Origin: Gammaproteobacteria bacterium
GTDB lineage: Bacteria; Pseudomonadota; Gammaproteobacteria; JAADJB01
Assembly (NCBI GenBank): GCA_013151035.1
Contig: JAADJB010000024.1
Location: 1-64,000, forward strand
Direction of reading: 5' to 3'
Length of the DNA stretch: 64,000 nt
This document shows, piece by piece, positions 16,256 to 62,923 of this stretch. Below the pieces are notes generated by a model. That model did no database searches. It was not told where the DNA came from and saw nothing but the letters and a program-made list of their open reading frames with translations. Numbering within the stretch: the stretch's first letter is position 1; each line of letters opens with the position of its first letter. The position numbers and the translations under genes are program-made.

Positions 16256-16608
16256 ACATGATCGAACTACACGGCAGAGAAATCAAAGTAACCCTGAGCA
16301 AGAAGGCGCAACGGGCACTGGCACAACGCGATCAGCCGTTGCAGGTCGAGATGCAACTCTACTTCAGTTGCCTGATCAAGAAACAAGTTCGCTTTCAAGA
16401 TACCATCAGTGATGATGCAGTTGATGCCGCACCCGGTCTCAAGATCAGCTTTCGCCCCATCTGCACAGCACAATGCCGACTGGTCGATGCCAATGATGAG
16501 GTGCCGACCATGACCATGCCGATAACAAACCCACAGGCATTCACCCCGCATTGGTTCTATCTGGACTATAAAAGTCAGCAGTGGTGTGGTGAATTCGGTT
16601 ATACCTGA
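16252..16608 (+). CDS. conserved-looking hypothetical protein coupled to topA
   Basis: Protein of 118 residues beginning at the ATGA overlap with the topA stop codon, so translation is probably coupled. The sequence (MNMIELHGREIKVTLSKKAQ...) is soluble and mixed alpha/beta in character, with four cysteines (SCLIKK, RPICTAQC, QWCGEF) and an aromatic C-terminus. I do not recognise the family. Position between topA and tsaC, tight spacing on both sides (1 nt to tsaC) and codon use like its neighbours argue for a real gene. The cysteines could bind a metal, but no standard zinc motif is formed. Confidence 0.7.
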   Translation: MNMIELHGREIKVTLSKKAQRALAQRDQPLQVEMQLYFSCLIKKQVRFQDTISDDAVDAAPGLKISFRPICTAQCRLVDANDEVPTMTMPITNPQAFTPHWFYLDYKSQQWCGEFGYT

Positions 16609-16609
16609 C

Positions 16610-17164
16610 ATGCCCCCCTGGCGGCTGCAACAAGCCGTTCGATGTCTGCACAAAGGCGGCATACTCGCCTACCCCACAGAATCAGTCTATGGACTAGGGT
16701 GTGACCCCTTTAATCCAGAGGCAGTCCAACACCTGCTGACACTAAAAGGACGCTCACAAGCCAGAGGACTGATACTCATCGCCTCTGATTTTAGCCAACT
16801 ATCCGATTTATTAATGCCCCTGCCAACAAAAACCATGCGTACGTTATATCGTTCCTGGCCCGGACATGTTACCTGGGTCTGCCCCGCACATCCTGAAGTC
16901 CCCATCTGGCTACGCGGAAGACACACCAGTCTAGCCGTGCGAGTAACCGCTCACCCACTGGCTGCGGCGCTATGTCAGGCATGGGGCGGCCCCCTGATAT
17001 CCACCAGCGCCAACCTGAGCGGTCACCCCCCCGCTCGCAACCCACTACAGGTACGCAAACAGTTTGCCCAACAGATTGATATGATTATTTATGGTGATGT
17101 CGGCACACAAGAGAAGCCCAGCGTTATCAAGGATGCCTTAAACAATAAAACACTACGTCGTTAA
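16610..17164 (+). CDS. tsaC: TsaC/Sua5/YrdC threonylcarbamoyl-AMP synthase
   Basis: Makes L-threonylcarbamoyladenylate for the universal t6A37 modification of ANN-decoding tRNAs. The YrdC fold is evident: GGILAYPTESVYGLGCDP near the N-terminus, KGRSQARGLILIAS, the LAVRVTAHP strand and the STSANLSGHPPA motif. About 184 residues, the TsaC (short) type without the Sua5 C-terminal domain. A GTG at 16586 is possible, but ATG 16610 lies 1 nt after the preceding stop and gives the normal N-terminus MPPWRLQQAVRCL. Last gene of the dprA-smg-topA block. Confidence 0.93.
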   Translation: MPPWRLQQAVRCLHKGGILAYPTESVYGLGCDPFNPEAVQHLLTLKGRSQARGLILIASDFSQLSDLLMPLPTKTMRTLYRSWPGHVTWVCPAHPEVPIWLRGRHTSLAVRVTAHPLAAALCQAWGGPLISTSANLSGHPPARNPLQVRKQFAQQIDMIIYGDVGTQEKPSVIKDALNNKTLRR

Positions 17165-17191
17165 ATGTCATCCTCGCGCAGGCGGGGATAA
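17165..17191. repeat. family D repeat (GTCATCCTCGCGCAGGCGGGGAT)
   Basis: Short imperfect palindrome right after the tsaC stop, related in sequence to the element at 39411 (ATTCCCGCCTGCGCGGGAAT). Such repeats are widespread in proteobacterial intergenic DNA. Confidence 0.5.
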
Positions 17192-17243
17192 CAAACATAT
17201 ACACAAATGACAGGTGTAACCTGTGCAACCTATGAAAAAAGGA

Positions 17244-17274
17244 TAAAAAAAAGACCTTACAAGGTGTAAGGTCT
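17244..17274 (-). terminator. rho-independent terminator, minus strand
   Basis: Read on the minus strand: AGACCTTAC-ACCTT-GTAAGGTCT, a perfect 9-bp stem, followed by a run of eight T. On the plus strand the T-run would lie before the stem, so it works only for minus-strand transcription. No protein gene on that strand leads into it, which supports a small RNA upstream. Confidence 0.8.
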
Positions 17275-17487
17275 AAAAGTAACGCTTCTCAGCGTCGGAG
17301 GAGTCAGTAAACATGGAGAGTGTTTATGGTATGGATCCGTTCCAAATATTCAGAACTATTACTCTCAAGGATTGGATCACAACCGATTTCAGGATCCCCG
17401 CTAAAACGGGTCTTCACAACCATCTGTTGATAAATCCAATGGGTCTCACTTTTTAAGCTCTGCCGGTTCAGACCCATACCATAAACA
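17244..17487 (-). ncRNA. candidate rod-shaped small RNA, 6S-like, with intrinsic terminator
   Basis: On the minus strand, a 22-nt segment starting GUUUAUGGUAUGGGUCUG (near 17486) pairs with one ending CCAUACCAUAAAC (near 17318). This gives about 18 continuous base pairs, including two G-U pairs that would be A-C mismatches on the plus strand. The stem closes about 170 nt with an open middle. An inner stem follows (AUUGGAU/AUCCAAU, then CAAC-A-GAU/AUC-G-GUUG) and an apical CCCG-UUUUAG-CGGG hairpin. A perfect terminator lies about 45 nt beyond. Closing stem, central bubble, terminal stem and length are the plan of 6S RNA. However, the usual zapA/ygfA neighbours are absent and I cannot align it to 6S by sequence. 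Nothing further is seen from 17488 to 17675, which is AT-rich. Confidence 0.5.
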
Positions 17488-17675
17488 ATTAAATATCATC
17501 TCATTAAGTTCACTAAGGGTATCGTCGGTAGCCTGGATATCTTTAATAAAAATTGATAAAAGCCTGAAAAATGTGTTGTTATTTTATAAATTATATGTTT
17601 AATTTCAACTAATTAAAAAAAACAGAAACAAAAAAACATGAAAAATACTTGTTATCTCATACCACATAAACTCGG

Positions 17676-17703
17676 ATGACACAGCCTCCAGCAATGTTAT
17701 AAT
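17676..17703 (+). promoter_or_regulatory. sigma-70 promoter for hemB
   Basis: A -35-like ATGACA and a perfect TATAAT are separated by 16 bp. The TG of an extended -10 (TGTTATAAT) is also present. The expected transcript start lies about 40 bp before the hemB ATG. Confidence 0.65.
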
Positions 17704-17725: not shown

Positions 17726-18763
<1,038 letters not shown>

Positions 18764-21678: not shown

Positions 21679-22434
21679 CTACCGACGTCTGGCAAAACCA
21701 GCCAGGCCCAAAAGACCCGAGCCAAACAACCAGACTGCAGCAGGAACGGGAACCACTGTCGGTGCCTTAATACTAAAGCTAGCATAGGCAGTCAGCTTGG
21801 TTTCTTCAAGCACCGAAATAGGCACAGTATTCAGCATGCTAAATGCAACATTAGGATTACCCGCATAGGTCTCACCCGCACCATCAAAGGTATAGGTACC
21901 CGCCCCTGCATCCCAGATATAACTTGGTAATGCACTTGGCACCAATGGCCCATTACCAAATATCCAGTCAGGTTTTTCCAACCATGGGTCTGTTAATAAA
22001 TCCCCTGCCGCATCATAGGCCCTGAGGCTAATCGTTTCACTGGTGGCAGAACCAAAGTCCAGATCAGCTATAGTAAAATAGGAGTGCGCGGGAAGCAGAC
22101 CACCATTATTGGTAAGACCACTAAAATCGAATACACCGGTACCTGTAGCTGATGCTGATGCGCCCAGGGCGAGTGTACCTGTGCCGGTAAAGGTACCCAG
22201 CCAAGGGGTTGCCGCCGGACTACTCCAGGTACCGGAAAAACCCACCGGTGAATTATCAACATAGGTTGGGTTTACGTATGTAGGCACCCCTAGATTAATG
22301 GCAGGAAACGGTACCTTTACCTTAGTGAGAGAATCAAGGGGATCTATAGAGCCTGCAGATACCGTTAATGAAACAAGATACAGTGCTGAGACAGCAATAT
22401 TTTTTACCAGATTATTTTTAATAATTTTCATCAT
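21679..22434 (-). CDS. PEP-CTERM sorting-signal protein, paralogue 1
   Basis: Secreted protein of 251 residues with an N-terminal signal peptide (about 1-27, ending SLTVSAGS) and a C-terminal PEP-CTERM signal. The signal is VPVPAAVWLFGSGLLGLAGF followed by ARRR: the proline motif, a membrane helix and a basic tail. Exosortase would cleave it there; no exosortase gene is in the window. The middle is rich in Gly, Thr, Ala and Pro with a conserved block TNNGGLLPAHSYFTIADLDF and AYDAAGDLL. The second PEP-CTERM protein at 56.5 kb shares that block, so the two are paralogues. The gene stands alone with its own terminator. The ribosome-binding site is GGAGA. Confidence 0.9.
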   Translation of the reverse strand: MMKIIKNNLVKNIAVSALYLVSLTVSAGSIDPLDSLTKVKVPFPAINLGVPTYVNPTYVDNSPVGFSGTWSSPAATPWLGTFTGTGTLALGASASATGTGVFDFSGLTNNGGLLPAHSYFTIADLDFGSATSETISLRAYDAAGDLLTDPWLEKPDWIFGNGPLVPSALPSYIWDAGAGTYTFDGAGETYAGNPNVAFSMLNTVPISVLEETKLTAYASFSIKAPTVVPVPAAVWLFGSGLLGLAGFARRR

Positions 22435-60818: not shown

Positions 60819-62827
<2,009 letters not shown>

Positions 62828-62923
62828 CTATATGATGCTAAAGTATAATCCTTATAATACTTGCCTGCCAGCCCCAAAATCCGTACTCTTACAGAAATAA
62901 CGAAGTAAGGACAAAACAGCCTA

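What the first reader, a model, noticed from the sequence alone, without database searches (positions are those of the whole stretch)
17244..17487. 6S-like rod-shaped RNA on the minus strand with its own terminator
Seen: complementary segments at 17318-17339 and 17465-17486 form about 18 continuous pairs when read on the minus strand. Two are G-U wobbles that become A-C mismatches on the plus strand, so the minus strand is the likely RNA. Inside are an open central region, a second stem and an apical hairpin, and a perfect T-tailed terminator follows on the same strand with no protein gene leading to it. The plan (closing stem, central bubble, terminal stem, about 170 nt) is that of 6S RNA, but the primary sequence and neighbours do not identify it.
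Basis: partly seen in the sequence, partly recalled or inferred. Interest (0 to 1): 0.65.

Follow-up and report, generated by a model that had tools for sequence, protein, structure and literature searches.

The report
Flagellar-sigma anti-Shine-Dalgarno small RNA family
The minus strand between tsaC and hemB encodes a conserved, apparently uncatalogued small RNA that is not 6S: it carries a CUCCUCC that can pair with ribosome-binding sites, and in many gammaproteobacteria it sits behind promoters that look like those of the flagellar sigma factors.

Summary
The minus strand folds into a rod (18-21 bp closing stem, internal loops, apical hairpin) followed by a perfect T8 terminator, and 11 homologues show strong compensatory change. 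The 6S reading is wrong: the genome has a canonical 6S elsewhere (99.8 bits) and the region gives no 6S match.

It occurs in 42 of 55 genomes of four orders (27 of 27 high-quality ones). Divergent members with a compensated hairpin occur in further gammaproteobacterial families. Many loci lie near tsaC, hemF, rubredoxin, an SBF transporter or hemB.

A sigma-28 (FliA) type box (TAAAG-N14-GCCGATA) lies upstream in 36 of 45 members (0.8% of control stretches); many add a sigma-54 site about 48 or 58 nt further up. The window copy, TAAAG-N14-GACGATA, is one of four exact matches in its 2.4-Mb genome, which encodes FliA; its flagellin and cheV genes carry similar boxes.

Best explanation (inferred): a motility-linked, trans-acting sRNA that blocks ribosome-binding sites. 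It works like betaproteobacterial double-hairpin RNAs (RF02278, S17) and anti-hemB, but fails their Rfam thresholds. Expression, Hfq binding and targets are untested.

The parts
17520..17545 (-). sigma-28 (FliA)-type promoter box TAAAG-N14-GACGATA
   Evidence: 11/13 match to TAAAG-N14-GCCGATAA; one of 4 exact hits to TAAAG-N14-GNCGATA in the 2.4-Mb genome; near-matching boxes precede flagellin and cheV; homologues carry the box in the same arrangement
17513..17513 (-). approximate transcription start (inferred from the box; not measured)
   Evidence: inference from promoter spacing; predicted RNA 17513-17244, about 270 nt
17319..17489 (-). rod-shaped 5' domain; 21-position closing stem 17489-17469 with 17339-17319 (one A-C mismatch in the window copy)
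   Evidence: fold z -5.1; covariation in 11 homologues
17383..17424 (-). conserved apical module GAUGGUUGUGAAGACCCG-loop-CGGGGAUCCUGAAAUCG
   Evidence: aligned with GGUGUGCAGAUCCGC..CGGAACUCCUGAAGCG of homologues; near-identical stretch seen in a divergent homologue, L243
17297..17303 (-). CUCCUCC, anti-Shine-Dalgarno seed, predicted unpaired (p about 1.0)
   Evidence: invariant in the 40-sequence core alignment (loci were found by this motif); unpaired probability in the predicted transcript
17281..17296 (-). hairpin 1, GACGCUGAGAAGCGUU (GNRA-type tetraloop GAGA/GAAA)
   Evidence: conserved; compensatory GACGC/GCGUU to GGCGC/GCGCU in divergent members
17244..17274 (-). intrinsic terminator AGACCUUACACCUUGUAAGGUCU + U8
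   Evidence: homologues keep a terminator here with compensatory changes
16586..17164 (+). tsaC/sua5-type gene, convergent neighbour
   Evidence: ORF; tsaC also neighbours the RNA in several homologous loci
17753..18763 (+). hemB, divergent neighbour; sigma-70-like site at 17676-17703 (+)
   Evidence: ORF, promoter scan, 66-76% identity to named hemB genes

Best explanation
The element is a trans-acting regulatory small RNA of about 270 nt (minus strand, about 17513 to 17244). Predicted working: RNA polymerase with the flagellar sigma factor FliA (sigma-28) starts it from the box at 17545-17520; relatives often add a sigma-54 promoter. The 5' rod is a folded, protective or processing domain. 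The working end is the 3' module: an exposed CUCCUCC followed by a tetraloop hairpin and a U8 terminator, the usual Hfq-loading 3' end. CUCCUCC pairs with strong Shine-Dalgarno sequences (GGAGGAG) of a set of mRNAs and blocks ribosome entry; the rod may be cut off by RNase E to release a 60-67 nt form, as reported for S17 in Bordetella. It would thus couple the flagellar regulon to repression of other genes. SHOWN: structure, conservation, neighbourhood, terminator, presence and placement of promoter-like boxes, presence of a FliA gene. INFERRED: transcription, sigma-factor use, Hfq binding, processing, targets.
For: Core 23-mer (up to 2 changes) followed by a T-tailed terminator in all 45 loci extracted. 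High-quality genomes with it: 7/7, 8/8 and 11/11 in three orders, plus the window's own. CUCCUCCGACGCUGA invariant in the 40-sequence alignment. Covariation in the rod and in hairpin 1 and terminator of divergent members. Core model R1 finds divergent members in more families, several near tsaC/hemF/hemB/SBF. Sigma-28-type box scoring >=11/13 in 36/45 members against 0.8% of 609 control stretches; >=12 in 42% against 0%. Sigma-54 box about 48 nt (group A) or 58 nt (group C) upstream of it. FliA family match in 22/22 genomes tested, 21 above cut-off, own included. Flagellin and cheV of the own genome have TAAAG-N14-GCCGTTA / GTCGCTA. CUCCUCC unpaired with p about 1 in the window RNA. RBS-directed action of CU-rich double-hairpin RNAs, and RNase E processing of S17, are reported in Betaproteobacteria (PMC5688073, PMC11722255).
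Against: No expression data. The window's sigma-28 box is imperfect, no sigma-54 box was found there, and its shuffle P was 0.02. With one mismatch allowed, such boxes are mostly background in this genome (79 hits against 55 for the reversed control). In group C the sigma-28-like box overlaps an inverted repeat and could partly be an RNA feature. Members are related, so the 36/45 are not independent. FliA is common, so its presence is only a necessary condition. Core invariance is partly ascertainment, since loci were found by the core. A target scan over about a third of the genome gave no excess of strong pairings over shuffled seeds. Mean unpaired probability of CUCCUCC across the 45 is only 0.58 (fixed stretches folded). 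Hfq was not checked.
Confidence: 0.64

Rival explanations
1. It is a 6S RNA or second 6S paralogue that mimics an open promoter and sequesters RNA polymerase.
For: Rod with internal loops, about 170 nt, closing stem.
Against: Canonical 6S elsewhere in the genome; no RF00013 match in the region at E<=10; the most conserved part is a single-stranded anti-SD plus hairpin, and groups B and C of the same family have differently built 5' parts.
Confidence: 0.02
2. It is a cis-acting antisense or transcription-interference element controlling hemB or tsaC, as the name 'anti-hemB' suggests for its betaproteobacterial counterpart.
For: Position near hemB, tsaC or hemF is conserved; betaproteobacterial anti-hemB lies just upstream of hemB in the same orientation.
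Against: In the window the RNA ends at 17244 before tsaC, and its promoter box lies about 130 bp from the hemB sigma-70-like site, so it overlaps neither coding region nor the predicted hemB transcript. Which neighbour is adjacent varies.
Confidence: 0.1
3. It is a protein-binding decoy (CsrA/RsmA-type or another RNA-binding protein) acting through the structured 5' domain; CUCCUCC mainly serves another purpose such as folding.
For: 5' parts hold several GGA motifs, most visibly in group C; an apical module recurs across groups.
Against: The 5' domain is the variable part between groups, while CUCCUCC is kept and predicted unpaired in the window RNA. No count of GGA in loops against a background was made.
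Confidence: 0.12
4. It is the plus-strand leader of a small protein: GGAGGAG would be its Shine-Dalgarno sequence.
For: In the window an ATG lies 9 nt after GGAGGAG.
Against: 15 of 45 homologues have no start codon in reach and the others give unrelated lengths from 1 to 74 aa; terminators and G-U pairs favour the minus strand.
Confidence: 0.02

Closest known systems
Betaproteobacteria toxic small RNA / double-hairpin RNAs (Rfam RF02278; ncS03, ncS05, ncS27, ncS62 of Burkholderia; related S17 of Bordetella)
   Same: 3' architecture: CUCCUC, hairpin 1, short linker, U-tailed terminator; CU-rich region complementary to ribosome-binding sites; S17 has a long form and an RNase E-derived short form (PMC5688073, PMC11722255).
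   Different: Sub-threshold Rfam scores (22-30 bits, cut-off 50; no hit at the window); a long rod or other 5' domain; sigma-28/sigma-54-type promoters; conserved hem-locus position. S17 is described with a sigma-A promoter and Bvg-linked expression.
anti-hemB (Rfam RF02837; ncS04)
   Same: Slot and orientation next to hemB in several Betaproteobacteria; UCCUCC; following hairpin and terminator.
   Different: 22.9 bits at the window against cut-off 49.5; UCCUCC sits in a hairpin loop there; my core model matches it mainly through the terminator; its upstream box is ECF-like GAACT..GTC in 13 of 24 loci, not sigma-28.
Sigma-28-dependent sRNAs of E. coli (UhpU, MotR, FliX, FlgO; PMC10578931) and Campylobacter CJnc170/CJnc230 (PMC11187230)
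   Same: sRNAs wired into the flagellar sigma cascade (FliA-dependent; CJnc230 RpoN-dependent).
   Different: The E. coli ones are UTR-derived from other loci; no sequence relation was tested here; the present RNA is a free-standing gene next to hem genes.
6S RNA (RF00013)
   Same: General rod shape.
   Different: No covariance-model match; separate genuine 6S in the genome.

Membership tests
6S RNA (RF00013) | match to the Rfam covariance model above gathering score at this place | tested here: not met
   Only genome match is C42:50609-50792; no match in the region at E<=10
6S RNA (RF00013) | binds RNA polymerase and templates product RNA | not testable with these tools
   needs an experiment
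Betaproteobacteria toxic sRNA (RF02278) | score above the curated cut-off of 50 bits | tested here: not met
   22-30 bits in homologues; no hit listed at the window
Betaproteobacteria toxic sRNA (RF02278) | CU-rich unpaired stretch, hairpin, terminator in this order | tested here: met
Betaproteobacteria toxic sRNA (RF02278) | acts on target RBSs / slows growth when overexpressed | not testable with these tools
   literature only for the beta members (PMC5688073, PMC11722255)
anti-hemB (RF02837) | score above the curated cut-off of 49.5 bits | tested here: not met
   22.9 bits at window 17245-17302
anti-hemB (RF02837) | location just upstream of hemB, opposite strand | tested here: met
   window; L090, L096, L099, L111 for the beta family
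anti-hemB (RF02837) | UCCUCC presented in the loop of the first hairpin | tested here: not met
   here CUCCUCC precedes hairpin 1 and is unpaired; compare model and sequences
sigma-28-dependent sRNAs (as a kind) | sigma-28 consensus promoter at the 5' end | tested here: met
   11/13 in the window, 36/45 of homologues >=11/13; one of four exact genome hits
sigma-28-dependent sRNAs (as a kind) | loss of the transcript in a fliA mutant | not testable with these tools
   needs an experiment

The most novel reading that the evidence does not exclude
An old anti-Shine-Dalgarno sRNA gene at the hem locus of Beta- and Gammaproteobacteria has kept its place and its CCUCC working end while its promoter was swapped between alternative sigma factors: ECF-type boxes in betaproteobacterial anti-hemB, sigma-54 and/or sigma-28 in gammaproteobacteria. 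In the latter it acts as a motility-linked translational repressor.
Probability: 0.3. Interest if true: 0.78.

Novelty: new variant of a known kind. Interest (0 to 1): 0.62.

Why it matters
It defines a sizeable sRNA family with no Rfam 15 match above cut-off in the members scanned, with a strongly conserved anti-Shine-Dalgarno core, in environmental gammaproteobacteria where few sRNAs are characterised. If the promoter assignment holds, it links flagellar gene control to direct blocking of ribosome-binding sites, and gives a comparative case of one sRNA gene wired to different sigma factors. It is directly testable by Northern blot and a fliA deletion in a motile cultured relative.

Tried and rejected
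6S identity. Mobile-element or MITE reading of the inverted repeat: no second copy of 17240-17500 in the genome. Plus-strand small ORF after GGAGGAG: not conserved. Close relatives by blastn in 36 genomes: noise only, since no genus or family relatives are held. One class hit, L124, is a chance match inside a long ORF and was excluded. Homology with anti-hemB by covariance model: my model aligns mainly to the terminator. Target prediction on about 0.8 Mb of the own genome: no excess over shuffled seeds; best-looking RBS matches, unverified, are L275:11363 (function not identified) and L284:4895 (pilin-like protein, GGAGGAGTCAATATG). Weak R1 hits below about 34 bits are mostly terminator-driven and were not counted; some at 35-37 bits (L240, L241, and L238 in part) lack a proper core.

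Full report
WHAT IS THERE. On the minus strand GUUUAUGGUAUGGGUCUG pairs over 18 positions with CGGAUCCAUACCAUAAAC, two pairs being G-U. Minus strand 17240-17500 folds at -83.3 kcal/mol, z = -5.1; the plus strand is weaker, z = -2.9. A 10-bp terminator with T8 follows at 17274-17244, minus strand only. No gene on that strand leads into it.

NOT 6S. RF00013 matches the genome once, at C42:50609-50792 with 99.8 bits. In the region itself no 6S match appears even at E<=10, and Rfam gives nothing above cut-off there.

THE CONSERVED CORE. Comparing the intergenic DNA with 80 hemB loci from named genomes turned up short strong matches in Thiohalobacter thiocyanaticus and an Ectothiorhodospiraceae MAG. 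They correspond to CTCCTCCGACGCTGARAAGCGTT on the minus strand, directly before a terminator. Searching 369 genomes of the class gave 11 with the motif; one of these is chance. In the orders of three of the hit genomes it is found in 9/11, 16/23 and 16/20 genomes, and in 7/7, 8/8 and 11/11 of the high-quality ones. The window's own order holds a single genome, which has it. Together that is 42 of 55 genomes and 27 of 27 high-quality ones. The orders were chosen because they had a hit, so this shows consistency within orders, not frequency in the class. In all 45 extracted loci a hairpin and T-run follow. In a 40-sequence alignment CTCCTCCGACGCTGA is invariant; since the loci were found by this motif, part of that is ascertainment.

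THE ROD. The window rod aligns with that of group A (Thiohalobacter and the order of G121). Rod plus hairpin 1: 95.8% of pair cells are paired against 88.4% in shuffles and 34-41% in slid structures; 20 pairs have changes on both sides against 8.0 in shuffles. A caution: the structure came from the same alignment, and the sequences are related. Groups B and C have other 5' parts, so the rod is a subfamily trait and the 3' module is the family trait.

WIDER FAMILY. A covariance model of the core (R1) scores the window at 57.8 bits and finds, in the class sample, divergent members such as L228 (56.0), L229 (48.5) and L230-L234 (43-46), several with hairpin GGCGC..GCGC in place of GACGC..GCGTT, a compensatory change. 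On 22 matches 93.8% of cells pair against 81.2% shuffled; that alignment was fitted to the model and leans towards it. Some weaker hits lack the core and were set aside. Many loci lie near tsaC, hemF, rubredoxin, an SBF-type transporter gene or hemB; the loci fetched are about 3 kb, so absence of a neighbour is not informative.

PROMOTERS. Upstream of the core lies T(A/C)AAG-N14-GCCG(A/C/T)TA, the sigma-28 consensus as I know it, near-perfect in group B. Scores >=11/13 occur in 36 of 45 members against 0.8% of 609 random stretches from the same loci; >=12 in 42% against none. Most of groups A and C also have TGGCAC-N5-TTGCA, the sigma-54 consensus as I know it, about 48 and 58 nt further upstream, and several divergent members show one or both boxes. 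In the window the box is TAAAGATATCCAGGCTACCGACGATA at 17545-17520. Exact TAAAG-N14-GNCGATA occurs four times in the 2.4-Mb genome; one of the others is 82 nt before a GGDEF-protein gene. One-mismatch hits include flagellin and cheV, but with one mismatch the total is 79 against 55 for the reversed control, so most are background. FliA is encoded at C46:11409-12059, 262 bits.

HOW IT PROBABLY WORKS (inference). CUCCUCC is complementary to GGAGGAG and unpaired in the predicted 270-nt RNA. Beta double-hairpin RNAs with CU-rich stretches are predicted to act at ribosome-binding sites; ncS27 overexpression slows growth and an antisense to its CU-rich end does the opposite (PMC5688073). S17 of Bordetella exists in a form of about 190 nt and one of 67 nt, the short one RNase E-derived, and directly represses BP2158 (PMC11722255). 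By analogy the rod would be a 5' domain that protects the RNA or is processed away. My own target scan on part of the genome was inconclusive.

RELATION TO KNOWN FAMILIES. Homologues score 20-30 bits against RF02837 and RF02278, below cut-offs of about 50; the window scores 22.9 against RF02837. Betaproteobacterial anti-hemB nevertheless occupies the same slot and orientation at hemB in Gallionella, Gallionellales, Sideroxydans and Nitrosomonadales records, and 13 of 24 anti-hemB loci checked have a GAACT-N15-18-GTC/TCTGA-like box at 59-68 nt from the core. Common origin is possible, not shown.

CONCLUSION. Ordinary in mechanism class (a base-pairing sRNA), but a well-conserved family that Rfam 15 does not recognise, with unusual promoter wiring. 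I searched Rfam 15 and an open-access paper library; a description elsewhere cannot be excluded.

Noticed in passing
window 62744-62835 (-): TPP riboswitch, 79.2 bits, above the gathering score.
   Followed up: no
window 17166-17190 (+): 25-nt repeat TGTCATCCTCGCGCAGGCGGGGATA just after tsaC; about 20 further matches in the genome, some in inverted pairs. REP-like.
   Followed up: no
L248 1562-1492 (-) (G000 C23:82061-81991): Second anti-SD sRNA candidate in the same genome: GACTCCTCCATCCTCC, hairpin, terminator, between a 2Fe-2S ferredoxin-like gene and rplM; 36.8 bits with R1.
   Followed up: partly
L090, L096, L099, L111 and anti-hemB loci L131-L150: Betaproteobacterial anti-hemB has an ECF-sigma-like box (GAACT..GTC/TCTGA) at 59-68 nt from its core in 13 of 24 loci.
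   Followed up: partly
L189 (G000 C19:91465-91440): GGDEF-domain protein gene 82 nt downstream of an exact sigma-28-type box: a possible link of the flagellar regulon with c-di-GMP.
   Followed up: no
window 17210-17224 (-): Second small hairpin ACAGGTTACACCTGT beyond the terminator, sharing TTACACC with the terminator loop region.
   Followed up: no
window 21679-22434 (-): ORF ending in VPVPAAVWLFGSGLLGLAGFARRR, which looks like a PEP-CTERM sorting signal.
   Followed up: no
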